64,000 bases of DNA, from the IMG/VR virus record IMGVR_UViG_3300020156_000028, positions 1-64,000 of that record. The stretch is one strand, 5' to 3'. Positions 18,075 to 46,128 of this stretch are shown piece by piece; position 1 is the stretch's first letter, and every line of letters begins with the position of its first letter. The position numbers and the translations under genes were made by a program. Origin of the DNA: a virus. Below the pieces are notes generated by a model that was given only the letters and a program-made list of their open reading frames with translations, was not told the DNA's origin and did not search any database.

Positions 18075-19124
18075 ATGGAACCCACAATCTACGACAGCCG
18101 GACGCTCTTGGGCGTGTTTTGGGATAACACGTACATGGAGCCGCCGGAAAATTACTGGCTGTCTTTCTTCCCGACGACGCTCAACTTCACGACTGAAACC
18201 ATCGATTTCAGCCAGTTGAACGACGTTCGCAAGCTGGCTCCTCTGGTCGTGCCGACCGCGCAAGGTGTGCCGATCTACTCGGCCGCCGAGCGTCTGGTGC
18301 AGGTCAAGCCCGCCTACGTCAAGCCCAAGGACCCCGTGACTGCGACCCGCATGATCCGCCGGGCCGCCGGTCTCGGCGAACTCGGGCAGCTTGTCCCGCT
18401 GACGCCGCAGCAGCGCTATCAGGCCATCGTCGCCGACATCATCCGCCAGCATCGCTTCGCTATCGAGCGCCGTTGGGAATGGCTGGCGGCCGGTGCGATC
18501 ATCGACGCCAAGAACATTCTGGAAGACGAGCGCTACCCCCGGACGGTGGTGGATTTCCAGCGCAACGCGGCGCAGACCGTCGTCCTTGGTGCGGGAGCCC
18601 GTTGGGGCGATGCCGGGGTTTCGATCCTCGACAACGTAGCCGCGTGGCGCTCCACGGCCCGCAGGGCACGGTTCGGCGGCGTCACCAACCGCCTGACCAT
18701 CGGCACCGATGTCTGGGATGTCATGCGCCACGACCCGGAAATCAAGGAACTGCTTAACACGCAGTACCGCTCCGGGGCGAACGTCAACCTGTCCCTCGGC
18801 ATGCTCGAAGGTCTGGAAGTCGAGCGCGTCGGCAATATCGAGACGCTGGAAGTCTACGTCTACTCGGACTACTACCAGCAGCCCGACGGGACCGTGGTTC
18901 CTTACATGTCGCCCAAGGACATCGTGCTGACCGGCCCGAACGTTCGCGGCGTGCGCTGCTACGGCGCGATTCAGGACATCGGGGCGAACCTCCAGCCGCT
19001 CTCCGTGTTCTCGAAAATGTGGAACGAAGAGGACCCGTCGGCGACGTTCATCATGACGCAATCGGCCCCTCTGATGGTTCCCATCAACCCGAACGCGACC
19101 TTCAAGGCGACCGTCGTCGCCTGA
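18075..19124 (+). CDS. major capsid protein, gpE family
   Basis: A 349-residue HK97-fold capsid subunit; length and order match lambda gpE (341 residues). Recognisable segments are VVPTAQGVPIYSAAERLVQV, the E-loop/spine region with YQAIVADIIRQHRFAIERRWE, and the C-terminal QSAPLMVPINPNATFKATVV. It is followed by a terminator-like hairpin, which may set its high expression relative to downstream genes. Confidence 0.94.
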   Translation: MEPTIYDSRTLLGVFWDNTYMEPPENYWLSFFPTTLNFTTETIDFSQLNDVRKLAPLVVPTAQGVPIYSAAERLVQVKPAYVKPKDPVTATRMIRRAAGLGELGQLVPLTPQQRYQAIVADIIRQHRFAIERRWEWLAAGAIIDAKNILEDERYPRTVVDFQRNAAQTVVLGAGARWGDAGVSILDNVAAWRSTARRARFGGVTNRLTIGTDVWDVMRHDPEIKELLNTQYRSGANVNLSLGMLEGLEVERVGNIETLEVYVYSDYYQQPDGTVVPYMSPKDIVLTGPNVRGVRCYGAIQDIGANLQPLSVFSKMWNEEDPSATFIMTQSAPLMVPINPNATFKATVVA

Positions 19125-30167: not shown

Positions 30168-30370
30168 ACGAGCCCCCGATCACCATGTCCGAAGCCAATC
30201 AAGCCGGTTATTGCGCTCGCGGTCAGCGCAGGTTTCTTCGCGAGCGCGTGCCCGACTGGCGCGACTATGTGAAGAACGGCCTGCCTATCGAGCTTGCTCG
30301 TGAGATCAACCCCGCCATGACCGAGCATATCCTCAAGCTTCGGGAGGCGCGCCGTGGGAAAGAAACCTGA
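30164..30370 (+). CDS. small hypothetical tail-region protein
   Basis: A 68-residue basic protein whose start overlaps the previous stop and whose end overlaps the next start. Contains YCARGQRRFLRERVPDWRDY and a C-terminal helix. No family recognised. Its tight packing argues it is translated with the tail-tip genes. Confidence 0.65.
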   Translation: MNEPPITMSEANQAGYCARGQRRFLRERVPDWRDYVKNGLPIELAREINPAMTEHILKLREARRGKET

Positions 30371-32796: not shown

Positions 32797-33537
32797 GTGG
32801 TGAAGAATATCGGCACAACGGCGAACTGGACTCAAATCCCCAAGCGGTCGAACGACTGGGGGCCGCGCATGAATGAGCAACTGGTGAAGATGGCCGCCAT
32901 GCTTCACGGTTCCGTGAAGAGCCGGACCACGGTGTTGCCTGCGAACCCGGCGGTCGATGACATGTATATCGATCCCGAGACGAAAAGGATCAACATCTGG
33001 GTCGGGGCGTTCACCGACGACGGCGTGACTCAGCCCGCCGAGTGGTATGAAATCGTGCCAACCCTCGGCGTCAAAATGTTCGTGGAGGACGAGTTCAAAT
33101 GGGTCCTCTTCAATCCGAATGGCAACTGGCAAGTCATCTGGGATATGAACAAGAGCCACCGGGCCATCGAACGGGAGTTCTCGTGGTATGCTCCGGGCAA
33201 CATCAGGAAGAACGCGGTCATCTTCGCCTACGTCGCCGCGCAGGAGTTTGTCATTGAAGCGGGCGCGCCGGGCTCGGGCGCGTCTTGCGAGGTGGCCCCG
33301 ACTTCCGATGTCGTGTTCAACGTCCGCAAGAACAACGCCTCCGTCGGCAACATCACCTTTCTGGCCGGGCAGACCGAGGGGGTTGTCAACATCCCGAATG
33401 AGGTCGCCGTCTTGCCTGCGGGGCAGGAAAGCCTTTATGTGCAAGCGAACTCGCTGTCCATCATTTCGCCCGCCGATACTCACGGCATGATAGGGCTCAA
33501 TGCGACGATCAGGGGGAAGATCAGGAGTATCGATTGA
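32797..33537 (+). CDS. tail-associated protein with DUF2793-like segment
   Basis: A 246-residue protein. I chose the first GTG of a GTG-GTG pair at 32797, 8 nt after AAAGGA; upstream codons overlap the previous gene. Residues about 40-110 (TVLPANPAVDDMYIDPETKR, then KWVLFNPNGNWQ) resemble DUF2793, found in phage tail proteins. The C-terminal half has a beta-rich domain ending in KIRSID. It is probably part of the distal fibre complex. Confidence 0.68.
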   Translation: MVKNIGTTANWTQIPKRSNDWGPRMNEQLVKMAAMLHGSVKSRTTVLPANPAVDDMYIDPETKRINIWVGAFTDDGVTQPAEWYEIVPTLGVKMFVEDEFKWVLFNPNGNWQVIWDMNKSHRAIEREFSWYAPGNIRKNAVIFAYVAAQEFVIEAGAPGSGASCEVAPTSDVVFNVRKNNASVGNITFLAGQTEGVVNIPNEVAVLPAGQESLYVQANSLSIISPADTHGMIGLNATIRGKIRSID

Positions 33538-34334
33538 TGGCTGACGGCGAGATCACCTACTACTATCCGGCCGAGACCTACCATCAATTGAACTCGGTCG
33601 CCTTCCCGGATCATTCGCGCAAACTGGCGGGGGCCGACGGCGTGATCCGAGCGTTCTGGCGGTCGGGCGAGCAAATGTGGGATGAAGCCCTTAACAACGC
33701 CATCGAATGGATTAGTCGCTGGATTCCCATGTACACCGTCTGGCGATCCGAACCGTATTACCCTTGGTATTCCCCGGTCATGAAACCGTTTCTTGCCGAG
33801 CCGGATCATAGCACCGCAGAACCGTGGATCACGCAAGTTCCGAGGGGGATTGTGTTCAACAGCACCTCGACGCCTAACGACAAGGATAAGGTCTACAAGC
33901 CGTGGGCGGGCGTCACGATTCCGGTTTTCGCTGATCGGATCATCGTGGGCTATGGCGGCGGTGACGGATTTAGCTGGCGCGGCATTGCGGCATATCAGGA
34001 GTATGAGGACGCTATCGAGATCGCCTTTTTCATCTCGGAAACGCGACCGGGGGAGATCGTGGCTTCGCATAAGGTATCCGAACCTTTCCGCCTGCGCACC
34101 AACTCCTACAGCACCCGTGTACGCGGCTATCCCTACGACCGGCCGCAGTTGCAGGTCTTGAAGAATGGCGTCCCGGTGGGCACGGCACGCAAATACATGT
34201 ACACGAGCGGCTTGCTGATGGACGCCGATACCGACTTTGAAACCGGCGATTTGCTGCAAATTTTCGCGCCCGTCGGAAAGTATGTCGGCATCTTCCACGG
34301 CGTCTGCATCTCGCTCTACGGGGAGCTTCTGTAA
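33537..34334 (+). CDS. hypothetical tail fibre-region protein
   Basis: A 265-residue protein; the ATG overlaps the previous stop. Rich in Trp and Tyr (WISRWIPMYTVWRSEPYYPW), with a beta-strand pattern in the second half. It lies between the DUF2793-like and beta-propeller genes and is likely a structural adaptor in the fibre network. No family recognised. Confidence 0.65.
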   Translation: MADGEITYYYPAETYHQLNSVAFPDHSRKLAGADGVIRAFWRSGEQMWDEALNNAIEWISRWIPMYTVWRSEPYYPWYSPVMKPFLAEPDHSTAEPWITQVPRGIVFNSTSTPNDKDKVYKPWAGVTIPVFADRIIVGYGGGDGFSWRGIAAYQEYEDAIEIAFFISETRPGEIVASHKVSEPFRLRTNSYSTRVRGYPYDRPQLQVLKNGVPVGTARKYMYTSGLLMDADTDFETGDLLQIFAPVGKYVGIFHGVCISLYGELL

Positions 34335-37300
34335 TGGCCAAGTCTCTCGCCGCGATCACTACGCTCGCAGCGCCCTACCTCGAATTGCGTGAACGTGACG
34401 GCCCCGGCGATCAAGGGTCTATCATCGCGGTCTATCCGAAGGTGATCAAGGCCCCGAGGAAACTCAAAGCAAGCCGTGACCTGTCTTTGCTGGCGATGGT
34501 ATCCGATCTTCGAATTGAAGACCTCCCGGCTATCGGCAATCCCGCAGAAGGCGTGCCGACGACGGGCTTGCGTCTGATTCACTGGAATGACAGGTGGGTT
34601 CTGTTCGGTGGTTCGGCGGGCGTTCCTCCCCGGCTTTACGAGCGGGCGGGGCCTGTCTTCGCCCAGACGCGCGCTTACGATCTCGCGGATTGGCCGACTG
34701 GCACTTATTTTTCGAGCGCCGCGTTCTCCATGAACGGTCGGTTTCTGTTCGCCGTTCGCGCCGACGATGCCGACACCGTGCAAGTCTACCAGTGGACTTC
34801 CGATGATCCCGAAGACCCGAGGGCTGTCTGGGAACTCAAGGACCCGCTGGAGATCGGCGTGTCCATCGTGGGGCTGGAAATCTCCCCCTTGAATAATTTC
34901 CTAATTGCCAAATTGAGCGACCTGACGTTCCGGTTGTTCGACATCCAAAATCTCCTAGCCCCTATCTCGCCGGTTCCTGCGGGCGAGTTCCTGACCATGA
35001 CCCCGGACGAGACCGAGTGGGTCCTCGCCCCGAGTGGTGGCGAAGCGGAGGTCTATTCGCAGGCGGCCGGGGCGTTCGCCCTGATCTCGTCGCTCGGCAA
35101 TTCCAACGGTACGGATCGCAAGGCGGCGTATGCTCCCGATGGGTTGGTGCTGGCGATCAACGGTCGCCCGTCATCCGGCACGGCCATGCCGCAGTTCTAC
35201 GCGCGCGGTGACGAGGGCGAGTGGATCGCGATCACCAGCCACGCGCACGCCGGGGCCGCGACATGGGAGACCTCCGGGTTCGCCTTCAAGAGCGACTCGC
35301 AGCAGATGATCTTCACGCACAATGACGGCGGCCAGCGTGCCGAGGTCTATGAGCGGGCGATCATCACGCCGGACGAGTTCACGGCCGCAGCCAGCCCGTT
35401 CACCGGCACCACGCACGCGCCGACGACCGGACCCCGCCCCGAGCGGTCGCATGACGGGTCGGTGGTCGCCACGTCGTCCGGCGTCTATCTCTGGGATGGT
35501 GAGGCGCTGGCCGATATCACGCCCTCGGGATATGCTTCGTCAGCGAACGATCTTTCGGTCTCCGGTGACGGCCAGTTCATTGCCCGCACGGGGGGAACTT
35601 CTGTCTCGGTTTGGAAACGCTCTGGCGACACCTTCGTCCCGGCACCGGGCATCACCGCCACGACCGGACTCTACCTGAAAGCCATGTCGCTTTCTCGCGA
35701 TGGCCGGTTCGCGGTGATCAACGCCAGCACGGCACCATTCGGCAACGGCACGTTGGAACTCCGTGTCATGGAGCGCGACGAAGGCGACGATACGTGGTCG
35801 CAGACTTCATCGACCGTCACTCTCTGGACGGTGGATTCGGTTATCATGCTCCGGGCGAAGTCGCTCTGGCATCCGAACCGGGACGACCTGTTCGTGATCC
35901 CCGGCTACGCCACCGGGGGCCAAACCTTCGGCATGCACCCGCTGGTGTACCTTCTCGCGGGCGGCGCGTGGACCTTGCAAGCCGCGCTCCCGGCCCCGGC
36001 GGGCTACAATGTCTATTACGGATTCAATGCATGGTCGCCGAACGGCAAGTTCCTCGCCGGGATCAACCGCAATAATCTCGCCAACGGCTTCTTGCTGGTC
36101 GTTTATGAATTGACTGGCGATACGTTCACGCTTCACCACACGGCTCCGCTCTTCGTGGCGACGGCTGGCGCGCCGCAGCAATTGGCGTGGTCGCCTGACG
36201 GCCGGTACATCATCTACGGCCGCACGACCGGCACGCGCACGACGGATTTCTTTTTCAACGAAGGGACCGATGATGACCCGGCTTTTGTCGCCGTGGAGGG
36301 GCCGTCCGATCTGGCGGCGACGGCGGCCGTAACCGGGGTCTTGTGGACCTCCGGGAGCTTGACGCTCTTCGGTAGCAGCGCCATCTGGAATCACTGGAAC
36401 TATCAGGTTCCCGAAGGCCATCCGTCCTACCTCCTGCTTCATACTTTCGTCGGCCCGGCCGGTGGCTTGCCGCCGCTCGACGGCTATTCTTTTGACGAAA
36501 GCGTGATCCATTTCGGCGGCGAGACGTGGGCGCAGCATCCCTATTCCGAAGATATCGAAACTCCCACATATCCAACAGAATTGTCCTTTGCGCCGCAATA
36601 TGCCGTGGACGATATCTGGGGCGTCCTGATGTCGAAATCGGGCAAGACCGTACTCTATGAAACGGCCGCCGGGATCGGTCTGGCGCAACGTCGCAACACA
36701 GGTTCGAACTTCCTCAATTCGGAAACCCTGCGTGGCTGTTTCGTCAATCTTTATGACCGGGAAGGGGATCAGTACACCGAGCGCGGCTACTCGATCTACG
36801 ACTACGGCACCATTATCAAAGACCTGACTTTCGCCCCGAACGGCGAGGTGCTGGCGTATCACGTCGATCCCATTGCCGAGGCCGCCGTGGACGCGCCGAG
36901 GGGCCGCCTGATCTACGACATCTCCGGCGACCGCTTCGAGTTTAGAGGGCAGGTCTGGGAAGCGGAGATGACCAACTCGCTGATGGCGTTCTCGGCCGAC
37001 ACGACCGCCTTCGTGGTGACGCACGAACATCTGGTCGCCAACACACCGTTTATCTCATTGCACGAGTTCGGCGCGGACTATGTTTTTACCCAGACGGATT
37101 CCGAGCCGGTCGCGTTCGGACCTCCTGATTTTTCGCTTTGCGATGATGTCGTGGTCGCCCATGGCGGGTCGCCCCAGATGACATTCTTCACATACGCCTC
37201 GCCCGATCTGATCCCAAATCCGAAGGCGATCAACTGGGATTACGAGGGCGTGATCCTCGCCATCGGCTTCCGCGAAAACTGCGACGGGATCGTGATTGTC

Positions 37301-37612
37301 ACGCCGGACGAGATCGTGATCATGGAGCCGGATATCGAAGACCCGGAGACACTGGAGCCCGAAGTCGAGGAGCCGCTTGAAGAAGAAATCGAAGAACCCG
37401 AAGACGATGACGGCGAGTATCCAGACATTGAGGTGGACGGCAACGACAGCGACGGTTCGACCATCACGATCCGGCCGAACCCGGTTAGAAATCCGTGGTA
37501 TCCCGGAGACTACGACTATACGCCGGGCACGCCCAAGCCGGTCAATAACATCAGCTTTGTGCCTTACGTGTCCGTCACCGTGACGTTCCGCGTTATGTCC
37601 ATTCCGCAGTAA
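34334..37612 (+). CDS. large beta-propeller (WD40-like) tail protein
   Basis: A 1092-residue protein. It contains many blade-like repeats of the WD40/TolB kind, each with a hydrophobic strand, a turn such as SPDGRYIIYG, SRDGRFAVIN, SVSGDGQFIAR or APNGEVLAYH, and a partner strand naming an exterior parameter. Enough blades are present for two propellers. Near the C-terminus an acidic, proline-rich stalk of about 50 residues (EPEVEEPLEEEIEEPEDDD) is followed by a short beta domain. Phage propellers of this sort are unusual; receptor binding to host surface sugars is a reasonable inference. The two other propeller genes at 39036 and 40491 share its style. Confidence 0.78.
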   Translation: MAKSLAAITTLAAPYLELRERDGPGDQGSIIAVYPKVIKAPRKLKASRDLSLLAMVSDLRIEDLPAIGNPAEGVPTTGLRLIHWNDRWVLFGGSAGVPPRLYERAGPVFAQTRAYDLADWPTGTYFSSAAFSMNGRFLFAVRADDADTVQVYQWTSDDPEDPRAVWELKDPLEIGVSIVGLEISPLNNFLIAKLSDLTFRLFDIQNLLAPISPVPAGEFLTMTPDETEWVLAPSGGEAEVYSQAAGAFALISSLGNSNGTDRKAAYAPDGLVLAINGRPSSGTAMPQFYARGDEGEWIAITSHAHAGAATWETSGFAFKSDSQQMIFTHNDGGQRAEVYERAIITPDEFTAAASPFTGTTHAPTTGPRPERSHDGSVVATSSGVYLWDGEALADITPSGYASSANDLSVSGDGQFIARTGGTSVSVWKRSGDTFVPAPGITATTGLYLKAMSLSRDGRFAVINASTAPFGNGTLELRVMERDEGDDTWSQTSSTVTLWTVDSVIMLRAKSLWHPNRDDLFVIPGYATGGQTFGMHPLVYLLAGGAWTLQAALPAPAGYNVYYGFNAWSPNGKFLAGINRNNLANGFLLVVYELTGDTFTLHHTAPLFVATAGAPQQLAWSPDGRYIIYGRTTGTRTTDFFFNEGTDDDPAFVAVEGPSDLAATAAVTGVLWTSGSLTLFGSSAIWNHWNYQVPEGHPSYLLLHTFVGPAGGLPPLDGYSFDESVIHFGGETWAQHPYSEDIETPTYPTELSFAPQYAVDDIWGVLMSKSGKTVLYETAAGIGLAQRRNTGSNFLNSETLRGCFVNLYDREGDQYTERGYSIYDYGTIIKDLTFAPNGEVLAYHVDPIAEAAVDAPRGRLIYDISGDRFEFRGQVWEAEMTNSLMAFSADTTAFVVTHEHLVANTPFISLHEFGADYVFTQTDSEPVAFGPPDFSLCDDVVVAHGGSPQMTFFTYASPDLIPNPKAINWDYEGVILAIGFRENCDGIVIVTPDEIVIMEPDIEDPETLEPEVEEPLEEEIEEPEDDDGEYPDIEVDGNDSDGSTITIRPNPVRNPWYPGDYDYTPGTPKPVNNISFVPYVSVTVTFRVMSIPQ

Positions 37613-37624
37613 CAGGAGAATCCC

Positions 37625-38050
37625 ATGGCCCTTCGTTTTGCTCCCGGTGCTGCGATTGCCGCCTGCAACGCCATTGTTGATCTTGTGGACGTGGGCGCGG
37701 GCAATGGCCGCCTCGACATCTTCACCAGTCCACGGCCGCCGACCCCGGATTCCGATGTCACGACGCAAATCCTGCTTGTGTCCTTCCCGTTGGCAAAGCC
37801 TGCCTTCGGGGATGCAGAGGAAGTTTTAACTGGGGGTGGTGCGACCCTCAATACAGTTCCGGCGGCCGAGCCGGTCGGAAGCGGCGAAGCGAACTGGTTT
37901 CGGGTCTATGACGGCGACGGGAACGCGGTGTTCGATGGCGGGGTTTTCACCCATCCAGCGGCCGATCTGGAGGTTTCGACCCTTGATATCGAGATCGGGA
38001 CACCTGTCACGATAGTCAATTTGTCGTTCATTCAACCGCACGGTTACTAG
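37625..38050 (+). CDS. tail accessory protein, paralogue 1 of 3
   Basis: A 141-residue protein starting MALRFAPGAAIAACNAIVDL. The family pattern is a helical N-terminus, a strand such as LDIFTSPRPPTPDSDVTTQI, a motif FPLAKPAFGDA, then NWFRVYDGDGNAVFDGGV, and a final strand IVNLSFIQPHGY. It is one of three tandem paralogues (with 38103 and 38609). Similar proteins occur as small virion structural components near fibre genes. Likely a decoration or fibre module; function unknown. Confidence 0.72.
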   Translation: MALRFAPGAAIAACNAIVDLVDVGAGNGRLDIFTSPRPPTPDSDVTTQILLVSFPLAKPAFGDAEEVLTGGGATLNTVPAAEPVGSGEANWFRVYDGDGNAVFDGGVFTHPAADLEVSTLDIEIGTPVTIVNLSFIQPHGY

Positions 38051-38102
38051 CGGGATCGCGCAATTTCGCCTATAGCGGATTGACCAACAGACGGAGCGCC
38101 AG

Positions 38103-38531
38103 ATGGCCCTTAGAATTTCCAACGCGCTTGCGATCCTCGCTTGCAATGCTTTCGTGGACGCTCTGGACAGCGGCGCGTCTGCCGCCAGTCTCGAAGTATT
38201 CTCGGGCGCACAGCCCGCAAATCCGCAAATCGACGTGACGACGCAGACATTGCTCGTCCGTTTCGACTTGCCGGAGCCCGCTTTCGGGGAAGCGGTTTCC
38301 GTCAGTGGCGGCGCGCGCGCGGAGGCCGCGCCAGTCGATCCGGTTCTCGCCTTGGCCTCGGGAACCGCGACATGGTTTCGCGCGTATGATGGTGACGGCA
38401 ACGCAACGCTCGACGGTTCGGTGTCCGAAAGCGATGGCGACGGAGAACTTCTGGTCGCTTCCGCCAATATCGTCGCAGGCACGGAAGTTTCGATCATCAG
38501 TTTCACTTTCACGCAACCTAAAGGATACTAG
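38103..38531 (+). CDS. tail accessory protein, paralogue 2 of 3
   Basis: A 142-residue protein aligned end to end with its neighbours: MALRISNALAILACNAFVDA, LEVFSGAQPANPQ, FDLPEPAFGEA, TWFRAYDGDGNATLDGSV, SFTFTQPKGY. The intergenic leaders before copies 2 and 3 also share CTAGCGG near the preceding stop, which supports tandem duplication of gene plus leader. GGAGCG upstream is its ribosome binding site. Confidence 0.72.
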   Translation: MALRISNALAILACNAFVDALDSGASAASLEVFSGAQPANPQIDVTTQTLLVRFDLPEPAFGEAVSVSGGARAEAAPVDPVLALASGTATWFRAYDGDGNATLDGSVSESDGDGELLVASANIVAGTEVSIISFTFTQPKGY

Positions 38532-38608
38532 CGGTTCGCGGGGAAGGTGGTAGTCGAGTAAGATAATTTCAAATATAGCGGGGGAGAAGCCCCTATAGGA
38601 GACCCACC

Positions 38609-39034
38609 ATGGCCGTCAAATTCGCCGCAGCAGTCGCAATGTCCCTCGCCAATCATCTCGCTTCCCTCGTGGACGCGGCGGCGACTCCCGGAACCCTGAT
38701 CATCTACGACGGCGCGGAGCCTGCCAACCCGGATACTGCCATCGGTTCGCAGGTTGCTCTTGTTACCTTTCCGCTCGGCGACCCGTCGTTCGGCGCGGCC
38801 GTTGACACGGGCGGCGGCGGCCAGATCACGGCGGAAGCCATCGCCCCGGTGGACGCGGACGAGGGCGGCACGGCCGCGTGGTTCCGCATCCTTGACGGTG
38901 ACGGCGACGTGATCCTGCAAGGTTCCGTCACCGATACGACCGGCAACGGCGACCTCAAGGTCTCCTCGACTACGGTCGTCGCCGGTATCGAAGTCTCGGT
39001 CGTCTCGCTGACCTTCACGCAGCGGAAGGTCTGA
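38609..39034 (+). CDS. tail accessory protein, paralogue 3 of 3
   Basis: A 141-residue protein with AGGAG upstream. It keeps the family marks (LIIYDGAEPANPDTA, FPLGDPSFGAA, AWFRILDGDGDVILQGSV, SLTFTQRKV) but differs more at the N-terminus (MAVKFAAAVAMSLANHLASL). It abuts the second propeller gene by one base pair, so the paralogue set and the propellers are expressed together. Confidence 0.72.
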   Translation: MAVKFAAAVAMSLANHLASLVDAAATPGTLIIYDGAEPANPDTAIGSQVALVTFPLGDPSFGAAVDTGGGGQITAEAIAPVDADEGGTAAWFRILDGDGDVILQGSVTDTTGNGDLKVSSTTVVAGIEVSVVSLTFTQRKV

Positions 39035-39035
39035 T

Positions 39036-40481
39036 ATGGCCCTCGGCAACCCCCTTCTCGCGGCCTATGATTCCACGGGCACGCTCCGCACGTTTGAGTA
39101 CGCGGCGGGAGTGTTCGTCCAGATGGGCTCGCTCGGGGGGTTGGCCCATGTCGTTACGTCGGACCAGATCGCGCACGGGGCCATGACCCGGCCCCTGATC
39201 TATTGGACCGAGGACGATTCCAATCTCGGAGTCTGGCGCACCAAGACCAGCACGACCTTTGCGCACGATTATCTGAACGCGGACACCTCGCGCGTCGTCG
39301 CGGAGACGACCTATCCCGGCAGCGCGGAAAGCGGCGTCTTCCGGGGCGAGCGGATTGATCCGAACCTGTTCGCGATCATGCTAGTCGATCCGGGGTTTGT
39401 CGCAGCGAACGCCACGCTGTACTTCGTCGGCGGGACCGCCCCGGCCTTCTCGATTGACGGAAGTCTCGACCAGACGCCCCTCTTCGTCATGGCGGCGCGG
39501 CCCGACCGTCAGTACCTTGTCATGGCAGGCGGCGGTACGATCAAGACCCATAAGCGCACCTCGGCCGCGAACGTGCGCCCTGCGACGTGGACTCCCGTGA
39601 CAGGTCTCGCGCCGACAATCGACGTGGACCTTGCCGCGTGGTCATTCAACAATCGCAGTTTGATCGTGGTAGACAAGACGCAGAACCGGGCGCAGGTCTG
39701 GATGCTCGACGCGGATGTCTGGACAATGATGCACGATCTTTCTCTTCCGGCCGGGACCCCGGCCCGGATCGCGTCTTCGCCGGATGGCCGCTTCATGGCG
39801 ATCTCCTGCGACAACGCGGGCGAGTTCACGACGCGCGTCTTCCGCCGCACGGGCGACTACTTCATGATCCACCAGACGCTCGCCGGGATCGGGGCGCTCC
39901 TCGACTTTTCGGCCGACGGCGTACTCCTGATCGATTGCGCGGAGCAAGTCTGCTACGAGCGCGGCAGCGACGACCTGTTCGCGGTCAAGAACGGGGCGAT
40001 GGCGAACATCCCGGCGCTTGTCGTGCAGCAAGCCATCTCGTTCGGCCGCACGGATGCCTATGGCGTGCCCCGGCTTTACGACGCGGCCGTGGAAGACTTC
40101 GCGAGCGGCGCGGTTGACCTCGAAAACCTCAAGGTAACACTTCTTTCCTCGGCCGCTGTCTTCGATCCTTCCGACGCGACCTTGGCCGACGCCACCAGCA
40201 ACGGGTCGTGGGAGCCCGCTGGTGGCGGCTGGCCTGCGGGGGGTGTGGACCTCGGCGACGTGGCGGGTGTTCCGGGAGACAACGGCTACGACCTGACACT
40301 CGGCGAGTTCTCGCGCGTAATCGTGGATTCCGGCATCACTTTCCGCTACCTCCTGATCTACGACGCGACTTCGGGCGTGCCGCTGATCAATGTCGATCTG
40401 ATCGAAGATCGGGTCGTCGCCAAGAACCGCGAGCTTGTGATCAATTTCCGTGGTGCTTTTCTCCTGAATTTCCGCAGCTAA
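39036..40481 (+). CDS. beta-propeller tail protein with C-terminal fibre domain
   Basis: A 481-residue protein. Residues about 1-330 have propeller-like blades (ARPDRQYLVMAGGGTIKTHK, ASSPDGRFMAISCDNAGEFT). The C-terminal 130 residues (LENLKVTLLSSAAVFDPSDA, then FRYLLIYDATSGVPLINVDL) resemble a beta domain found in many phage fibre or appendage proteins. The combination suggests a receptor-binding head on a virion-attachment domain. Confidence 0.72.
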   Translation: MALGNPLLAAYDSTGTLRTFEYAAGVFVQMGSLGGLAHVVTSDQIAHGAMTRPLIYWTEDDSNLGVWRTKTSTTFAHDYLNADTSRVVAETTYPGSAESGVFRGERIDPNLFAIMLVDPGFVAANATLYFVGGTAPAFSIDGSLDQTPLFVMAARPDRQYLVMAGGGTIKTHKRTSAANVRPATWTPVTGLAPTIDVDLAAWSFNNRSLIVVDKTQNRAQVWMLDADVWTMMHDLSLPAGTPARIASSPDGRFMAISCDNAGEFTTRVFRRTGDYFMIHQTLAGIGALLDFSADGVLLIDCAEQVCYERGSDDLFAVKNGAMANIPALVVQQAISFGRTDAYGVPRLYDAAVEDFASGAVDLENLKVTLLSSAAVFDPSDATLADATSNGSWEPAGGGWPAGGVDLGDVAGVPGDNGYDLTLGEFSRVIVDSGITFRYLLIYDATSGVPLINVDLIEDRVVAKNRELVINFRGAFLLNFRS

Positions 40482-40490
40482 GGGGCTGGC

Positions 40491-42587
40491 ATGCTTTCGT
40501 TTACAGAGCGCACCGTTGCCAGCCCGCAGGTCGCGATGTTCGACATCCTGATCAGCCACAACGGCAAGCATGTCGTCGCGGCCGTGTCGAACCTCCCCAT
40601 GGCGATCCGCTCTCGGGACGCAAACGATGCTTTCGTGGCGGGCGCTGCGGCCGGTTGGGGCACAGTCAACTCCGGCGGCGGCGCGTTCTCTCGGGACAAT
40701 CAGTATCTCTTCCTGTCAAGCGGAACCTACCTCATGCGCGGCACGCGCGTCGGGGAAGCCTATGATTACGACGGCTGGAACATCAATTCCGGCGGCCCGC
40801 GCGGGGTGGATGTCAATGCCGACGGGTCCATGGTGGCGGCCGGTATCGGCAACGCCTGCGTGGTCTACCGGGTCTCGGACAAGGCGGTCCTTCTGAACTA
40901 CAACTGCGCCGATCTGGTCGAGGATGTTCGGTTCTCCCCTGACGGCCAGTACCTTGTGGCAGGTGCCCGGACCACGGGGCCTTTCCTGTTTTCTATTGCC
41001 GGTGGAGTGATCACGGCGCGCGGTGCTCTGGGGGCAGGCTACGGCAACTGGAACTTCACATGGCATCCCGATAGTGACCATTTCGCCGCCTCGCAATATC
41101 TGAATGGCGTACAAGGGCTCCACATATACAAGAAGGCGAGCGCGACTTCGTTCACTCGGCTGGCCGCCCCTTTCAGTGACGGAGGACCCGGCGGCGCGGT
41201 GATCGGTGCAGCCTATCTTGGTGGAGCCGGAGAAGGCTACCTTCTGACGGCGCGGCTCGGGGCGTATCCGGCGAAGCTCTATAGGCGCGACGGGGATTCC
41301 TACATCCTCGATACCGTCGAAGGCTTGCCGACTTTTACCAGTCTGGAGGCGTTGAAGGCTGCCAAGGACGCCAACACCATCACCTACTTCAACTCCGGCG
41401 GCCCGATCAAGGTTTTCGATTTCATCCCGCCGCCAATCTCCTCGGAAGGCGCATTGGTCGGCCCGTTCGCCGATCTGGCCGCCGAGGTCGGCTTGGGTTT
41501 CGAGGCGAACGGCGACCTGACTGGTCCTTTCTCAGAGATGACCGGAGACATCCAGATCGCGTCCGGCGGATCGGGCGACCTGATCGGCCCCTTCGCCGAG
41601 ACCGGCGGGCTTGTGGCGTTTGGTGATCCGGGTGTTGCCGTCGAGATCGAGGTTCGGGTGTTCCCGGCTCAAATCCAGTTGACCCCCTCGGGATCGGTCA
41701 TCAGCGACCGGGCTCCGGGGTGGTTCTCTTACGGCGAACTGGTCGGCCCGTTCGCGGATGCCTCGGGCGAAGCGCTCCTGCCGCTGGAGCTTTCCGGCGA
41801 CCTGATCGGGCCGTTCGTGTCCAGCAGCGGAACCGGCGAGGTCGAGATCGAAGGAACGGCCGCTCTTGTCGGCCCCTATGCGGATTTCGCGGCCGAGGTG
41901 GTCTTGGTCCTGCCGACCGTGCAAGGCGACCTGACAGGCCCCTACGCCGATCTGGCGGGCGAGGTCGTCGTGCCTATCGCGGTCATGGCCGATCTGGTCG
42001 GCCCCTATGTCTCCAGCAGCGGAACCGGAGAGGTCGAAGTCGAGGGCAACGGCGCGCTGGTCGGCCCGTTCGCCACGTTCGCGGCCGTGGTCGGCATGCT
42101 CAATGAGGCGGAAGGCGAACTGACCGGCCCGTTCATCGACGTGTCGGGTCTGGTCGAGGTCCCGCATGTGGATGTCAGCGCCGCGCTGGTCGGCCCGTTC
42201 GCGGATGTCTCGGGCGAAGCGAATGTGCCGTTCGGGGTCTTGGCCGAATTGACCGGGCCGTTCGCCGATGTCGCGGCAGAGGCCGAAGTTCCGCAGGCCG
42301 CCTATGGCGATCTGGTCGGCCCGTTCGCCGATGTCGCCGGGGAGATGGGCACGGAGTTTCGGATCGACGCCAATCTGCGCGGACCCTATGTTGCAGTCGA
42401 AGGGACCTTGCTCTATCGAAACAGTGCCGACATCGCCTTGACCGGGTTCCTGCCTCGCGTGAGGATCATGACCTACGAGCAAGAAGATGGCCCCGGCTAC
42501 GATAACGCGCCGTCCTTGGGCAAAGGCAGCGGCTTGCGGGTCGGGGGCGGTCCTTCGTTCGGCATGAACAAGTCATTCGGGAGATAA
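40491..42587 (+). CDS. propeller plus 14-repeat fibre protein
   Basis: A 698-residue protein. Residues about 1-310 have propeller blades (SPDGQYLVAGARTTGPFLFS). Residues about 319-645 hold 14 repeats of about 21 residues whose core is [GA]-x-L-[VTI]-G-P-[FY], usually followed by A-D-[VLF]-[AS]-x-E and a short beta strand. One non-repeat insert of about 35 residues separates repeats 3 and 4. Such short-period repeats suggest a beta-spiral or beta-solenoid stalk. The last 45 residues are glycine-rich (GKGSGLRVGGGPSFGMNKSF), perhaps a trimer cap. It is a probable long tail fibre. Confidence 0.75.
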   Translation: MLSFTERTVASPQVAMFDILISHNGKHVVAAVSNLPMAIRSRDANDAFVAGAAAGWGTVNSGGGAFSRDNQYLFLSSGTYLMRGTRVGEAYDYDGWNINSGGPRGVDVNADGSMVAAGIGNACVVYRVSDKAVLLNYNCADLVEDVRFSPDGQYLVAGARTTGPFLFSIAGGVITARGALGAGYGNWNFTWHPDSDHFAASQYLNGVQGLHIYKKASATSFTRLAAPFSDGGPGGAVIGAAYLGGAGEGYLLTARLGAYPAKLYRRDGDSYILDTVEGLPTFTSLEALKAAKDANTITYFNSGGPIKVFDFIPPPISSEGALVGPFADLAAEVGLGFEANGDLTGPFSEMTGDIQIASGGSGDLIGPFAETGGLVAFGDPGVAVEIEVRVFPAQIQLTPSGSVISDRAPGWFSYGELVGPFADASGEALLPLELSGDLIGPFVSSSGTGEVEIEGTAALVGPYADFAAEVVLVLPTVQGDLTGPYADLAGEVVVPIAVMADLVGPYVSSSGTGEVEVEGNGALVGPFATFAAVVGMLNEAEGELTGPFIDVSGLVEVPHVDVSAALVGPFADVSGEANVPFGVLAELTGPFADVAAEAEVPQAAYGDLVGPFADVAGEMGTEFRIDANLRGPYVAVEGTLLYRNSADIALTGFLPRVRIMTYEQEDGPGYDNAPSLGKGSGLRVGGGPSFGMNKSFGR
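41447..42427 (+). repeat. 63-bp-period coding repeats in fibre gene
   Basis: Fourteen degenerate in-frame copies encode the [GA]xL[VTI]GP[FY] unit. Copies 5 and 8 (VSSSGTGEVEIEG and VSSSGTGEVEVEG) are near-identical and copies 11-13 are also close, indicating recent internal duplication. Copy number could change by recombination or slippage. Confidence 0.8.
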
Positions 42588-42590
42588 CAG

Positions 42591-42872
42591 ATGGCCGCCA
42601 CGACTCTCTACCATACGATCACCCCGGACGAGTGGACGCAGGTCGCCAGCGGCTTCTCGTTCATCCTCGTGCAGCTTCGCTCGCATGGCGTGGTCCGCAT
42701 GCACGTTGGCGACAGTGAGGCCGTCGTGGATGACGACTCGGCCGACATCGTGCTGGCGCGCGGCATGTCTGGTGCGGAATCCTCGTTCTCGGCGGGCGGC
42801 GTCCCGGACGGAACGGCGGTGTGGCTCCGCTCCGTCAACGGGTCCGAACAGGTCAGCGTGCTTTCCTACTGA
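42591..42872 (+). CDS. small virion protein at end of fibre cluster
   Basis: A 93-residue beta-rich protein (FSFILVQLRSHGVVRMHVGD, then PDGTAVWLRSVNGSEQVSVL) starting 3 bp after the fibre gene stop. Small proteins of this pattern occur next to fibre genes in other phages and are probably capping or adhesion modules. Its last 20 bp overlap the end of the convergent zinc-finger-like gene. Confidence 0.68.
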   Translation: MAATTLYHTITPDEWTQVASGFSFILVQLRSHGVVRMHVGDSEAVVDDDSADIVLARGMSGAESSFSAGGVPDGTAVWLRSVNGSEQVSVLSY

Positions 42873-43173
42873 TGTTGTGCTTGACGGCGACGTGCTGAAC
42901 GTGCCGCTCCAGAACCTTCCGGGCCGGGGAAAAGCTCTTCCGGCCCGCTTCCATGTCGTCTTCGTTCCAATCCTGCGCCATCCGGCACATGACGGCCCAG
43001 ACGCCCTTTGCGTTCTTGCGGTCGTAGCGCATGGTCATGAACAGGTCGTAGAGATCGGCCCCGCGCTGCTTGCGGCGGTTATTGTGGGCCGTGCGGCACT
43101 CGCTGGCGCAGAAAATCTGTTCGTGGGCGCGAACGGTCTTGAATTGCTTGCCGCACTCTAGGCACTTGCACAT
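42853..43173 (-). CDS. small zinc-binding protein on the opposite strand
   Basis: A 106-residue protein starting MCKCLECGKQFKTVRAHEQI, with GGAG 7 nt upstream. Cysteines in CKCLECGKQF and IFCASECRTAHNNRRKQRG form a C2C2 zinc-finger pattern. The rest is basic. It lies between the fibre and lysis genes yet points the other way, and its convergent end overlaps the fibre-side gene. A nucleic-acid-binding or regulatory role is likely. Short length, good codon pattern and an RBS support it as real. Confidence 0.7.
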   Translation of the reverse strand: MCKCLECGKQFKTVRAHEQIFCASECRTAHNNRRKQRGADLYDLFMTMRYDRKNAKGVWAVMCRMAQDWNEDDMEAGRKSFSPARKVLERHVQHVAVKHNISRKAR

Positions 43174-43221
43174 GTCGTATCTCCGTCTGTTTCTGATCTG
43201 ACGTGTACACGGCAAAGGCCC

Positions 43222-43250
43222 TTTCTGCAAACAAAAAGTTGGGATATAAG
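43222..43250 (+). promoter_or_regulatory. probable lysis promoter with CAAAC-N5-GTTGG operator
   Basis: TTTCTG (43222-43227), 17 bp, TATAAG (43245-43250). The spacer contains CAAAC-AAAAA-GTTGG, one base off the phage operator. It lies 28 bp before the endolysin start. The -35 box is poor, so it may need an activator. A CGTGTACACG palindrome lies just upstream (43202-43211). Confidence 0.55.
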
Positions 43251-43277
43251 GGCTATGGTTAACACGGAGGGAATCCC

Positions 43278-44000
43278 ATGAACGAACATGTGCAGCGCGT
43301 CCAGAAAGCCTTGCTCTTGGCAGGCTACGATCTCGGGCGCTTCGGGGCCGATGGCGACTTCGGCCCGAAAACCGCCGACGCCGTGATGACGGCCATCAAC
43401 CTCTCCCGCATGATCGGCACGCACGAAGCCGTGGTCAAGGAAGGGGCACAAATCGAGGCTCCGGCCCTCAACGGCCGCGACGATCCGATCCCGGCGCTTT
43501 GGCTACCAATGGCCAAGATGAAGCGGATTATCATGCACTGGACCGCCGGGTCTTATACGGCCTCGGAAGAGGACAAAGAGCACTACCATTTCCTGATCGA
43601 CGGGTCGGCCAAGATCATCAAGGGAGTCCATTCGGTCTCGAATAACGAGGTGATCCGGGGAAGCAATTATGCCGCTCACACCTTGAACTGCAACACGGGC
43701 TCCATCGGTATCTCGATTTGCTGCATGGCCGGTGCCACGGAATCGCCATTCAATCCCGGCAACTACCCGATGAAAGCCGAACAGTTCGGGGTCCTGATCG
43801 AAGCCGTGGCGCAGCTTTGCGAGGTCTACGACATCCCGGTCACGCCGCAGACCGTTTTGTCGCATGCCGAGGTGCAGGGCAATTTGGGTATTCAGCAGCG
43901 CGGCAAATGGGATTATACTCGCCTTCCGTTCGACCCCCAAATCAAGGGCGCGCGCGCCGTGGGCGACCATATCCGCGAACGTGTCTCCCTGTTCGTCTAG
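43278..44000 (+). CDS. endolysin: peptidoglycan-binding domain + N-acetylmuramoyl-L-alanine amidase
   Basis: A 240-residue protein, GGAGG upstream. Residues 1-45 form a PG-binding domain (VQRVQKALLLAGYDLGRFGA, then FGPKTADAV). Residues about 75-235 are an amidase_2 domain with zinc ligand H87 (IIMHWTAG), H196 (LSHAEV) and D212 (KWDYTRL). It has no signal peptide, so it needs a holin or related pore to reach the cell wall. It starts the lysis cassette. Confidence 0.92.
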   Translation: MNEHVQRVQKALLLAGYDLGRFGADGDFGPKTADAVMTAINLSRMIGTHEAVVKEGAQIEAPALNGRDDPIPALWLPMAKMKRIIMHWTAGSYTASEEDKEHYHFLIDGSAKIIKGVHSVSNNEVIRGSNYAAHTLNCNTGSIGISICCMAGATESPFNPGNYPMKAEQFGVLIEAVAQLCEVYDIPVTPQTVLSHAEVQGNLGIQQRGKWDYTRLPFDPQIKGARAVGDHIRERVSLFV

Positions 44001-44010
44001 GAGAATACCG

Positions 44011-44334
44011 ATGATGAAGACCTTCGCCATGCTCGCCGCCGTTTCCATGCTGGCGGCGAGTTGCCAGACAGGCGGTGTGGACGCCACGATCCAGAGCAAC
44101 CTCCCGAGGACGTGCGCCCTGATCGAGACCTCGCACCTCGCCTTCACGGTGCTGGCCGCAGCGGGTCAGGTGAGCAAGAGGACGGCGCGCGCCGAGCTTG
44201 CCGCCTACACCAGCACGCGGACCATCTGTGCCAATCCCGAGACCGCCACGGCGACCGACGCACTGGTCACGGCCGCCACGGCATATGCAACGATCTCCTC
44301 GGCGCTCGCCACGGAAAGAAAGAGGAAGAAATAA
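44011..44334 (+). CDS. small lipoprotein of the lysis cassette (possible spanin component)
   Basis: A 107-residue protein with AGGAG upstream. The signal MMKTFAMLAAVSMLAASC ends in a lipobox-like AASC, so Cys18 is probably lipidated. The mature part is Ala/Thr-rich and helical, ending in basic KRKK. Outer-membrane spanins are lipoproteins in this position, but no partner inner-membrane spanin with a coiled coil is obvious. The assignment to outer-membrane disruption is tentative. Confidence 0.6.
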   Translation: MMKTFAMLAAVSMLAASCQTGGVDATIQSNLPRTCALIETSHLAFTVLAAAGQVSKRTARAELAAYTSTRTICANPETATATDALVTAATAYATISSALATERKRKK

Positions 44335-44717
44335 TGGACGACATCCTCGAAATCACGAGGCCGCTTCTGGAGCTTCTGGTGACACTGGTGGGGCCTATCC
44401 TGATCGGGTGGCTCGCGACCCGACTCGCCACGGCGCTCAATGTCAAGACCGAGAAAGACCGGATCGCCTTGGAGGTCGCGTTGCGCAATGCGCTCCATTC
44501 CTCCGCGTCGAACGCATGGCTTTTCGCCTTGAAAAAGTTCGGGATTTCCTTTAGCGAGATCAAGGGGCTAGGCCCGGCCGATCTCCCGAAGGTGATGGCC
44601 TTTGCGAAGGAATACGTGCAGGATAAAAATCCAGATGCTCTCGCCAAGCTAGGGGTGTCGAGCAAGCAGTTGGAAGAAATTTTGCTGACGAAGTTGCCTG
44701 CGGTGAGAATGGAATGA
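44334..44717 (+). CDS. LLH-type holin-like membrane protein
   Basis: A 127-residue protein, start overlapping the previous stop (TAATG). Residues 8-33 (RPLLELLVTLVGPILIGWLA) are a transmembrane helix, followed by a charged helical cytoplasmic part (EKDRIALEVALRNALHSSAS). This layout resembles the LLH holin family (one N-terminal membrane segment and a long soluble tail). It probably forms or triggers the membrane lesion for the amidase. Confidence 0.65.
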   Translation: MDDILEITRPLLELLVTLVGPILIGWLATRLATALNVKTEKDRIALEVALRNALHSSASNAWLFALKKFGISFSEIKGLGPADLPKVMAFAKEYVQDKNPDALAKLGVSSKQLEEILLTKLPAVRME

Positions 44718-44744
44718 TTCCAAGGCTTTGTGGCTGAAAAGGAT

Positions 44745-44774
44745 AACGCCGGTCCTTCGCGGGATCGGCGTTTT
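44745..44774 (+). terminator. rho-independent terminator inside the lysis cassette
   Basis: AACGCCGGTCC-TTCGC-GGGATCGGCGTT followed by TT. The strong 11-bp stem with a UUCG-type loop lies 28 bp after the holin-like gene. Downstream genes may have their own promoter near 44806-44838. Confidence 0.72.
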
Positions 44775-44884
44775 CCATGTGTACCTGCAAGATATTGTAC
44801 TTTTGGAGCGCGAACGGACCCGGTACAATCAGGGTCATCATGGAAATGGTCACGACTCAATCAGTCGGAGAAAGGAAGCCCAAC

Positions 44885-45166
44885 ATGTTTTGGGGCATTG
44901 GCGATTCCTCAAAGCTGTCCACGGAGGAGAAGCAGACTCTTGACGCTCTCCGGCGGCTTGGGGAAACCGGGCATATCGTGGGATTGACGCCGGACCAAAC
45001 CAAGGTGGCTATCGCGGCCATCACCTTCTATTCGAACGTCACGGCCACGACAGGCATCATCGCCGGAGCGCGGAACGTGCTCTTGTTTCTCGGCTCGCTT
45101 TGCGTCATGTGGTGGGCCGTGAAAGATGTTGTCGTGCAGTTCATCAGGTCATCCGCAGGAGTGTAA
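44885..45166 (+). CDS. small membrane protein, holin candidate
   Basis: A 93-residue protein; GGA lies about 9 nt before the chosen ATG (44885). An alternative start 45 bp upstream is possible. A single strong hydrophobic segment near the C-terminus (ARNVLLFLGSLCVMWWAVKD) suggests an inner-membrane protein, and the N-terminal half is soluble. Location next to the endolysin cassette makes it a second holin or pinholin candidate. Confidence 0.6.
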   Translation: MFWGIGDSSKLSTEEKQTLDALRRLGETGHIVGLTPDQTKVAIAAITFYSNVTATTGIIAGARNVLLFLGSLCVMWWAVKDVVVQFIRSSAGV

Positions 45167-45169
45167 AGC

Positions 45170-45658
45170 GTGCCGTATCGTAAACTGTCATGGTGGCGTT
45201 TTCGCGCTATCGAACTTGCCGTCGCCGGAGGGATCATGGCGTCGGCAATCTATCTGTCCGACTACTTCCAGCAGCGGTATCGGGCGGATGTCCCGGCGGC
45301 CAACTGGTTCACGGTCAATGACATTTACGTGCCGGATTTCCGGGTCGGGGAGAACCCGACCTTGGTCTATGACCGGACGATCAAGGAACCGTTTCGCGGC
45401 TTCTGGGTGATCGAAATCGAGCGGTTCCTGCAAGATGGAAAGACGGTGCTGGCCTGCACCGGCTCCGGGGTCAATGATTACGAGGTGACGGATTATATTC
45501 CCAAGAACGAGGTCGCGTTCGAATGGCTGATCGGACGCGAGTGCGATGATCTGGAGCCCGGTTCCTATCGCATGCGCGGCTCGTGGTTGATGAAGCGCTA
45601 CGGCTGGCCGGACAAGCAGGTCGTGAAGTATTCGAACGTGTTCCAGATAAAGCCCTAG
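45170..45658 (+). CDS. membrane-anchored protein of unknown function
   Basis: A 162-residue protein with a GTG start 9 nt after AGGAG. Residues 13-32 (AIELAVAGGIMASAIYLSDY) are a membrane anchor, followed by an extracytoplasmic-type domain rich in Tyr/Phe with two cysteines (LACTGSG and GRECDDL) that could pair. It ends the rightward transcript and its stop overlaps the stop of the first leftward gene. It might be a lysis inhibitor, superinfection-exclusion factor or spanin partner. None is supported directly. Confidence 0.62.
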   Translation: MPYRKLSWWRFRAIELAVAGGIMASAIYLSDYFQQRYRADVPAANWFTVNDIYVPDFRVGENPTLVYDRTIKEPFRGFWVIEIERFLQDGKTVLACTGSGVNDYEVTDYIPKNEVAFEWLIGRECDDLEPGSYRMRGSWLMKRYGWPDKQVVKYSNVFQIKP

Positions 45659-46128
45659 ATCGGCGGCTCGGCGGTTGCCCGCCGGGCGCGCTTGATGATC
45701 ATCTTTGCATATCGAACCTGTCTTGCAGAAAGCTCGTAGTCGAACTGATACTCGTAGGGCACGGTTCGGGCAAAGTCGAGGTCTTGGAAATCGAGAGTAT
45801 CGGCCGCCTCTTCTCCGGCTTTCTTGAGGGCGTCGAGGAGTTCTCGACTCTCTGTTTGGCCTCCATCATCGCGCTCCTCAAATCGCGATGAATAGTCCCG
45901 GTAGCGCCCATAGTAGTCCCTCCTGTAAGGTTGTTGGGGCTTGTCTCGATAGACGATCTTGTCCACATAGACGATACGTTCCCTGCCCGACAGCAGAAGC
46001 TCGGCCAAGGTCTTCTTTTCCTCGGCCGCGATCCGCTTGATGAAGCGCAGGGCGTTAAGCTGTTCGCCCTCGTGATCGCTGCCGAGCATGCCAATGAATT
46101 TCTCCAGCTTTGAGCGGTTGTCAGCCAA
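45655..46128 (-). CDS. hypothetical early protein, DUF2786-like N-terminus
   Basis: A 157-residue protein with a TTG start; an internal ATG at about 46089 is an alternative. The N-terminal KFIGMLGSDHEGEQLNALRF segment looks like the DUF2786 helical domain. The C-terminal LSARQVRYAKMIIKRARR resembles the short motif often found with it. Tyr/Arg-rich linker between. It is the last gene of the long leftward unit and converges with the lysis operon. Confidence 0.65.
   Translation of the reverse strand: MADNRSKLEKFIGMLGSDHEGEQLNALRFIKRIAAEEKKTLAELLLSGRERIVYVDKIVYRDKPQQPYRRDYYGRYRDYSSRFEERDDGGQTESRELLDALKKAGEEAADTLDFQDLDFARTVPYEYQFDYELSARQVRYAKMIIKRARRATAEPPI

What the first reader, a model, noticed from the sequence alone, without database searches (positions are those of the whole stretch)
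40491..42587. Fibre protein with a propeller head and 14 short GP[FY] repeats
The 21-residue repeats, core [GA]xL[VTI]GP[FY], are very regular and near-identical copies occur (5 and 8; 11-13). I do not recognise this repeat from a known fibre family. Joined to a beta-propeller-like N-terminus and a glycine-rich end, it may be an unusual elongated adhesin whose length varies by recombination.
Basis: partly seen in the sequence, partly recalled or inferred. Interest (0 to 1): 0.62.

Follow-up and report, generated by a model that had tools for sequence, protein, structure and literature searches.

The report
Phage adhesin with a 21-residue repeat
A bacterial virus carries a long attachment protein made of a propeller-like head and fourteen short repeats; the same design, with different repeat letters, is shared by otherwise unrelated viruses of soil bacteria, some of which ride on flagella.

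Summary
In detail: ORF 40491-42587 (698 aa) has 14 L-x-G-P-[FY] repeats (10 of 13 spacings are 21, two 22, one 53). No Pfam, NCBIfam, PHROGs or PDB entry convincingly matches the repeat. The window is a Casjensviridae-like siphophage, and the ORF ends an adhesin cassette between tail-fibre genes and the endolysin: a propeller-like protein, three 'garland' proteins, a 481-aa virion protein, this fibre. Versions of the cassette occur in myophages 7-7-1 and Milano, jumbo phage Atu_ph07, ~193-kb Rhizobium phages and a metagenomic phage. Their fibres keep the 21-residue period with other motifs and, in 8 of 8 arrays measured, one 52-53-residue interruption early in the array. In 7-7-1 the repeat protein was found in virions by mass spectrometry; I saw it assigned nowhere in the cryo-EM paper. 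Best reading: a distal tail adhesin of an exchangeable receptor-binding cassette, the array being its shaft. 'Length varies by recombination' is not supported: DNA copies are diverged and four Rhizobium homologues show no repeat gain or loss. Structure prediction failed, so shaft, fold and oligomer remain inferred.

The parts
40491..42587 (+). the fibre gene: propeller-like head, 14 repeats, glycine-rich end
   Evidence: open frame of 698 aa with codon-position G+C 0.66/0.49/0.77, like its neighbours
40491..41426 (+). propeller-like N-terminal region (aa 1-312)
   Evidence: weak WD40/propeller matches within aa 13-203; homologous to the N-terminus of RHEph12 and L011 proteins
41448..41636 (+). 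repeats 1-3 (aa 320-382)
41637..41732 (+). interruption (aa 383-414) between repeats 3 and 4, giving a spacing of 53
   Evidence: same 52-53 spacing in 8 of 8 arrays measured
41733..42431 (+). repeats 4-14 (aa 415-647)
42432..42587 (+). C-terminal tail, glycine-rich (aa 648-698 and stop)
   Evidence: last 20 residues have 3 K/R and no D/E
39036..40481 (+). 481-aa virion protein of phrog_24741, homologous to 7-7-1 gp011, Milano gp1, Atu_ph07 gp576, RHEph12 QXV74257
   Evidence: PHROG E 4e-44; tblastn to 8 phage records; alignment A2
38609..39034 (+). garland-type protein, copy 3 (phrog_3758)
   Evidence: E 2.8e-34
38103..38531 (+). garland-type protein, copy 2
   Evidence: E 1.6e-34; PDB 9rkv_A E 1.7e-21, entry 9RKV being the 7-7-1 tail-fibre model
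37625..38050 (+). garland-type protein, copy 1
   Evidence: E 4.9e-24
34334..37612 (+). 1092-aa propeller-like protein that opens the cassette; no 21-residue period
   Evidence: Pfam PD40 23.4 bits, above its cut-off of 20.9; period 21 not among the leading periods above shuffles
42591..42872 (+). 93-aa protein behind the fibre (phrog_4772, unknown)
   Evidence: E 8.9e-5

Best explanation
It is a virion adhesin of a Casjensviridae-like siphophage: a fibre with an N-terminal propeller-like head and a beta-stranded shaft of fourteen 21-residue repeats. It belongs to an exchangeable receptor-binding cassette (garland-type proteins, a 481-aa virion protein, one or more 21-residue-repeat fibres) that siphophages, myophages and jumbo phages of Rhizobium/Agrobacterium-type hosts share. 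Likely working: garland proteins and the 481-aa protein bind the distal tail; the repeat fibre extends from them and its head touches the host surface or an appendage such as the flagellum. Shown: repeats, period, shared interruption, shared neighbours, homology to proteins annotated as virion structural. Inferred: shaft-like shape, tail-tip position, which end is anchored, the receptor.
For: Homologues with the same build: RHEph12 699 aa (tblastn 2e-6; BLASTP 2e-13), L011 656 aa (9e-9), Atu_ph07 gp575 (1.6e-4). Reversed controls gave 0.046 or worse in 8 of 8. Period 21 ranks first in 8 of 10 proteins tested, second in one (Milano gp2), not in one (window 1092 aa). One interruption of 52-53 in 8 of 8 arrays. 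Profile-profile: window-L011 probability 93, window-RHEph12 93, 7-7-1/Milano-RHEph12 62, Atu-RHEph12 26, in register; of 200 column-permuted controls all but two (53 and 42, both window/L011) were at or below 1.3. Neighbours: garland proteins and the 481-aa family next to the fibre in RHEph12, Atu_ph07, 7-7-1 and Milano, L011. Garland proteins surround the distal tail fibres of 7-7-1 and Milano. 7-7-1 gp107 and gp108 (equated by gene order and mass with RefSeq gp011 and gp010) were found in virions by MS. Window: homologues of the tail protein and tail fibre of Loktanella phage pCB2051-A lie directly upstream, the endolysin downstream.
Against: No usable structure. Direct window-Atu (2.5) and window-7-7-1 (0.1) repeat profiles do not match; the link runs through RHEph12. 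7-7-1 gp109 (RefSeq gp009, propeller plus repeats), the closest in domain order, is not in the MS list, and gp108 rests on 3 spectra. I saw neither gp010 nor gp011 assigned in the parts read of the 7-7-1 cryo-EM paper. PHROGs files phrog_3758 and phrog_24741 under 'head and packaging'. The basic C-tail of relatives is weak in the window.
Confidence: 0.68

Rival explanations
1. Head (capsid) fibre: the cassette makes long thin fibres on the capsid that catch the flagellum, as the eleven capsid fibres of 7-7-1 do.
For: 7-7-1 has 11 flexible protein fibres on capsid vertices that wrap the flagellum, of unknown protein. Atu_ph07, with the cassette, has mostly capsid-associated whiskers. In 7-7-1 the cassette lies just before terminase, portal and capsid genes. 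7-7-1 gp107 (52 kDa) peaked in the first gel slice, ahead of an 82-kDa protein in slice 5, as an SDS-resistant assembly might. The PHROGs category is head.
Against: Milano encodes the same proteins but no thread-like fibres were seen on it. Garland neighbours are at the tail tip. In the window the cassette follows tail-fibre genes, far from the major head protein gene at 18075-19124.
Confidence: 0.2
2. Independent origins: period 21 is a common solution for beta-rich shafts, so the resemblance between phages is convergence, not a family.
For: Motifs differ between phages; similar but 22-residue arrays occur in L013 and L014 behind other N-termini; Aeromonas phage BUCT551 has a DLTxPY repeat of period 14 on a different protein.
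Against: Same interruption of 52-53 early in the array in 8 of 8, same neighbours, in-register profile matches, homologous propeller ends.
Confidence: 0.1
3. Globular multi-domain virion protein (baseplate or decoration), not an extended shaft.
For: No extended structure was predicted; the MS-detected 7-7-1 repeat-only protein is small (37.5 kDa).
Against: Fourteen near-equal units with fixed turn residues; two short strands per repeat in the only usable model (low confidence).
Confidence: 0.12

Closest known systems
Rhizobium phage RHEph12 QXV74258.1 ('WD40/YVTN repeat-like', 699 aa) and QXV74259.1 (two-propeller paralogue)
   Same: propeller head, 3 repeats, 53-residue interruption, further repeats, same upstream neighbours
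   Different: repeat core xYPKFxVxG instead of LxGPF; basic C-tail; ~193-kb phage of another lineage
Agrobacterium phages 7-7-1 gp010/gp009 and Milano gp2/gp3 (Schmittlotzvirus)
   Same: 21-residue period; 52-residue interruption in gp010/gp2; garland and 481-family neighbours; gp010 is a virion protein by MS
   Different: head and long array are on separate proteins; motifs GDWxYPxY and APMADA; contractile tail
Agrobacterium phage Atu_ph07 gp575 and gp573 ('Hat/HatR', 'autotransporter adhesin')
   Same: propellers plus GDVLIPSIxTxG repeats of period 21, interruption 52, next to a 481-family protein
   Different: 1383-1438 aa with large N-terminal propeller regions; 490-kb jumbo phage
IMG/VR contig IMGVR_UViG_3300010218_000008 (L011)
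   Same: FVGPKG/FVGKKG repeats in register with the window, propeller head, garland and 481 neighbours
   Different: repeat lacks the aromatic at position 7; contig encodes two such cassettes; unnamed host
Aeromonas phage BUCT551 tail protein
   Same: ADLTGPY-like repeats
   Different: period 14, attached to a homologue of window ORF 30354-32783, not to a propeller; probably convergent

Membership tests
Cassette fibre family (unnamed; RHEph12, Atu_ph07, 7-7-1, Milano, L011) | period of 21 residues in the C-terminal part | tested here: met
Cassette fibre family (unnamed; RHEph12, Atu_ph07, 7-7-1, Milano, L011) | single interruption with 52-53 spacing early in the array | tested here: met
   53 after the third repeat; 8 of 8 arrays measured. 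Short arrays of 7-7-1 gp009 and Milano gp3 have no interruption, and L011 276-aa shows a 49-residue gap
Cassette fibre family (unnamed; RHEph12, Atu_ph07, 7-7-1, Milano, L011) | sits behind garland (phrog_3758) and 481-aa (phrog_24741) genes | tested here: met
Cassette fibre family (unnamed; RHEph12, Atu_ph07, 7-7-1, Milano, L011) | basic hydrophobic C-terminal end (RRxxxMVV type) | tested here: inconclusive
   window end has 3 K/R, no D/E, without an arginine run
WD40 / PD40 beta-propeller (Pfam) | score above the curated cut-off | tested here: not met
   20.1 of 305 bits and 15.8 of 27 bits; propeller-like only
WD40 / PD40 beta-propeller (Pfam) | propeller fold | tested here: inconclusive
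   AlphaFold model unusable
Garland proteins (window ORFs 37625, 38103, 38609) | sequence homology to the solved 7-7-1 garland protein | tested here: met
   9rkv_A E 1.7e-21 for ORF 38103; alignment A3 of all three
Casjensviridae (host phage) | terminase, portal and tail genes of that family | tested here: met
   TerL up to 53.5% identity to S-ESS1; PHROG tail set; formal taxonomy not run
Trimeric beta-spiral or beta-helix fibre shaft | trimer with repeating strand-turn units | not testable with these tools
   no multimer prediction; six-repeat monomer model pLDDT 50.5

The most novel reading that the evidence does not exclude
The 21-residue-repeat proteins are the missing appendage of flagellum-riding and hairy phages: gp010/gp011 of 7-7-1 would build its capsid fibres or the unassigned density on the Milano garland, and the window phage has captured the same appliance for a non-contractile tail, making it a flagellum- or surface-grabbing module that crosses tail types.
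Probability: 0.15. Interest if true: 0.8.

Novelty: new variant of a known kind. Interest (0 to 1): 0.5.

Why it matters
It ties proteins carrying scattered labels (WD40 protein, 'Hat/HatR', 'autotransporter adhesin', hypothetical) into one fibre family with a testable architecture, and shows a receptor-binding cassette shared by siphophages, myophages and jumbo phages. It also supplies candidate genes for structures that the 2024-2025 cryo-EM papers on Milano and 7-7-1 left unassigned.

Tried and rejected
AlphaFold2 on the single 698-aa sequence: pLDDT 31.9, no use. AlphaFold2 on a 6-repeat stretch with 6 rows (A5): pLDDT 50.5 for the best model, the other four 30-34; two strands per repeat. 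Foldseek with that model: nothing at E <= 0.001 in PDB or BFVD. The second viral hit (Gordonia phage GodonK minor tail protein, E 0.018, TM 0.66) is only a lead because the model is weak. A first repeat alignment (A4) was out of phase and not used.

Searches that found no relative: viral contigs with the window protein, with its 481-aa neighbour and with A1 (77 candidates, none confirmed); genome contigs with A6 (62 candidates, none confirmed); megablast of 36000-46000 in 50,697 phage records; L013 repeats and L011 fibre in phages. Viral scans that did: A2 gave 4 loci, A7 gave 2 (one is the L011 contig again, the other, L021, shares only propeller-like motifs). Atu_ph07 repeats hit only Atu_ph07 (2 records); 7-7-1 gp010 only 7-7-1 and Milano (3 records).

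Considered and rejected: recent tandem duplication at DNA level; BUCT551 as a family member (period 14, other protein); homology of the window 1092-aa protein to the repeat fibres (no period 21). Vibrio phages CKB-S1 and VP16T have a garland homologue, but none of the ten of their genes checked has period 21. Whole-window annotation was done only for the structural part and a few other genes.

Full report
What is there. The window is nearly all of an IMG/VR virus record of 64,556 bases. ORF 40491-42587 codes for 698 aa. Its C-terminal half holds 14 units of consensus G-D-L-V-G-P-F-A-D-V-A-G-E-V plus seven looser residues. L3, G5, P6 and F/Y7 are kept in 14 of 14. The spacing is 21 in 10 of 13 intervals, 22 in two and 53 in one. 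The periodicity is far above shuffles. The copies are old: synonymous positions have diverged (57% of identical residue pairs use the same codon).

The host phage. PHROG matches give terminase (12175-14274), portal (14487-16145), head protease, major head protein, tail terminator, major tail protein, tape measure (22850-27874), tail assembly and tail proteins. The terminase is 44-54% identical to the phages in the listed rows, mostly Casjensviridae where a record was opened (383 records match, 30 listed). Flagellotropic phage Chi belongs to this family (recalled). ORF 30354-32783 and ORF 32797-33537 are homologues of Loktanella phage pCB2051-A tail protein (E 9e-92) and tail fibre (E 1e-19). 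In that phage the endolysin follows the tail fibre within about 1.5 kb. In the window about 8.5 kb lie between 34334 and 42872, which suggests that the cassette was acquired.

The cassette. It holds a 1092-aa propeller-like protein, three garland-type proteins, a 481-aa protein and the fibre. The garland assignment rests on PDB 9rkv_A (E 1.7e-21), which is the tail-fibre model of the 7-7-1 cryo-EM paper (PMC12796354, sections 6, 10, 12 and 14 and passages read). There the garland surrounds the distal ends of the tail fibres, as in Milano (PMC10811340, passages read).

Relatives of the fibre. A direct search of 50,697 phage records gave three at E <= 0.01: RHEph12 and two copies of BUCT551. The neighbours led further: to Atu_ph07, 7-7-1, Milano and the Rhizobium phages. 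Their genes next to the 481-aa protein carry the same kind of array, with the motif changed: YPKF in RHEph12, IPSI in Atu_ph07, YPxY in 7-7-1 gp010 and Milano gp2, APMADA in 7-7-1 gp009, VGPKG/VGKKG in the metagenomic contig L011. Period 21 ranked first in 8 of 10 proteins. A scan of all ORFs of at least 150 aa in the same loci flagged period 21 in cassette fibres and in some overlapping antisense or shifted frames. In the five Casjensviridae control loci (L015-L019) the only period-21 flags were one tail ORF of S-ESS1 and an overlapping frame, with low scores of 0.19 and 0.03. Milano gp2, below the threshold of that scan, was missed by it.

The shared interruption. In eight arrays scored with family profiles, one spacing early in the array is 52 or 53 instead of 21. 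It follows repeat 3 in the window, RHEph12 (both proteins) and Atu573. In Atu575 the profile missed the third unit (74 = 21 + 53), and the motif count gives 52. In 7-7-1 gp010 and Milano gp2 the first unit scored too low, so two units were scored before the gap. In L011 the flanking units score weakly (5.6 and 6.1) and the number before the gap is not clear. Six other repeat proteins do not show it or were not measured that way: 7-7-1 gp009, Milano gp3 and OLIVR4 gp114 have short arrays; L011 276-aa has a 49-residue gap; L013 and L014 have period 22.

Homology of repeats. 42-residue profiles align in register: window-L011 probability 93.4, window-RHEph12 92.6, Schmittlotzvirus-RHEph12 62.1, Atu-RHEph12 25.9; the other six of ten pairs are at 2.5 or below. 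Of 200 column-permuted controls, 198 scored 1.3 or less; two window/L011 controls reached 53.2 and 41.9. So the window-L011 number alone is weaker than it looks, but BLASTP (9e-9) and the full alignment support it.

Virion evidence. In the 7-7-1 proteome (PMC3517404, section 9 and passages read), gp107 (52 kDa) has 18 spectra and peaks in gel slice 1; gp108 (37.5 kDa) has 3 spectra; gp109 is absent. By gene order and size these are RefSeq gp011, gp010 and gp009. In the cryo-EM paper a term search found gp010, gp011 and gp009 zero times. It states that the capsid-fibre proteins are unknown. The Milano paper leaves six weak densities at the garland unassigned; the Milano neck paper (PMC10491603, passages) reports no fibres on the collar. 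The receptor-binding screen of 7-7-1 named other genes, gp4, gp102 and gp44 (PMC8310070, passages). In Atu_ph07 the whiskers are mostly capsid-associated (PMC6102473, passages). I could not read its supplementary protein list.

A variable locus. In OLIVR4, a sister of 7-7-1, the two genes at the place of gp011 and gp010 code for a collagen-like fibre (GPQGPQG) and another protein, while the repeat protein gp114 is kept. That is what one expects of a receptor-binding cassette.

How it probably works. Two short strands per repeat with the G-P pair as tight turn would give a stiff beta rod (inferred; one search is low confidence). The head is propeller-like and differs in number between phages (none in 7-7-1 gp010; two tandem propeller-like segments in RHEph12 QXV74259, by its sequence and Pfam matches). 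The repeat end is constant in plan. Which end is bound to the tail is not known.

Novelty. Pfam, NCBIfam and PHROGs have no model that convincingly covers the repeat (phrog_9123 at E 0.024 is the only touch in the window). The PDB has none by sequence. Three paper searches for such a repeat, or for propeller and garland fibres, found no description. The fibre idea is ordinary; the cross-phage family and the shared cassette are the new part.

Noticed in passing
L003:5914-6690 (Aeromonas phage BUCT551 tail protein C-terminus): a 14-residue repeat ADLTxPYxLRPGVI at the end of a tail protein homologous to window ORF 30354-32783; same DLTGPY words, other period
   Followed up: partly
L022:3822-5081 (OLIVR4 gp112): collagen-like GPQGPQG fibre at the place where sister phage 7-7-1 has the 481-family protein: an adhesin swap locus
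   Followed up: partly
L011:3335-12446: two copies of the cassette in one metagenomic phage (garland pairs, 521- and 484-aa proteins, 276- and 656-aa repeat proteins) just before terminase
   Followed up: partly
L013:5824-7701 and L014:1845-4148: 22-residue repeat arrays behind beta-helix-like N-termini, close to a stretch encoding the C-terminal part of the 481-family protein
   Followed up: partly
7-7-1 gp107 (L006:12787-14295): a 52-kDa virion protein most abundant in the top gel slice in the 2012 proteome; possibly an SDS-resistant assembly
   Followed up: no
window 37625-39034: garland proteins are filed by PHROGs (phrog_3758) under head and packaging, whereas cryo-EM of 7-7-1 and Milano puts them at the baseplate
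   Followed up: partly
window 41532-42482, - strand: 316-aa open frame antisense to the repeats with the same period 21; codon-position G+C does not look coding, so probably a mirror effect
   Followed up: partly
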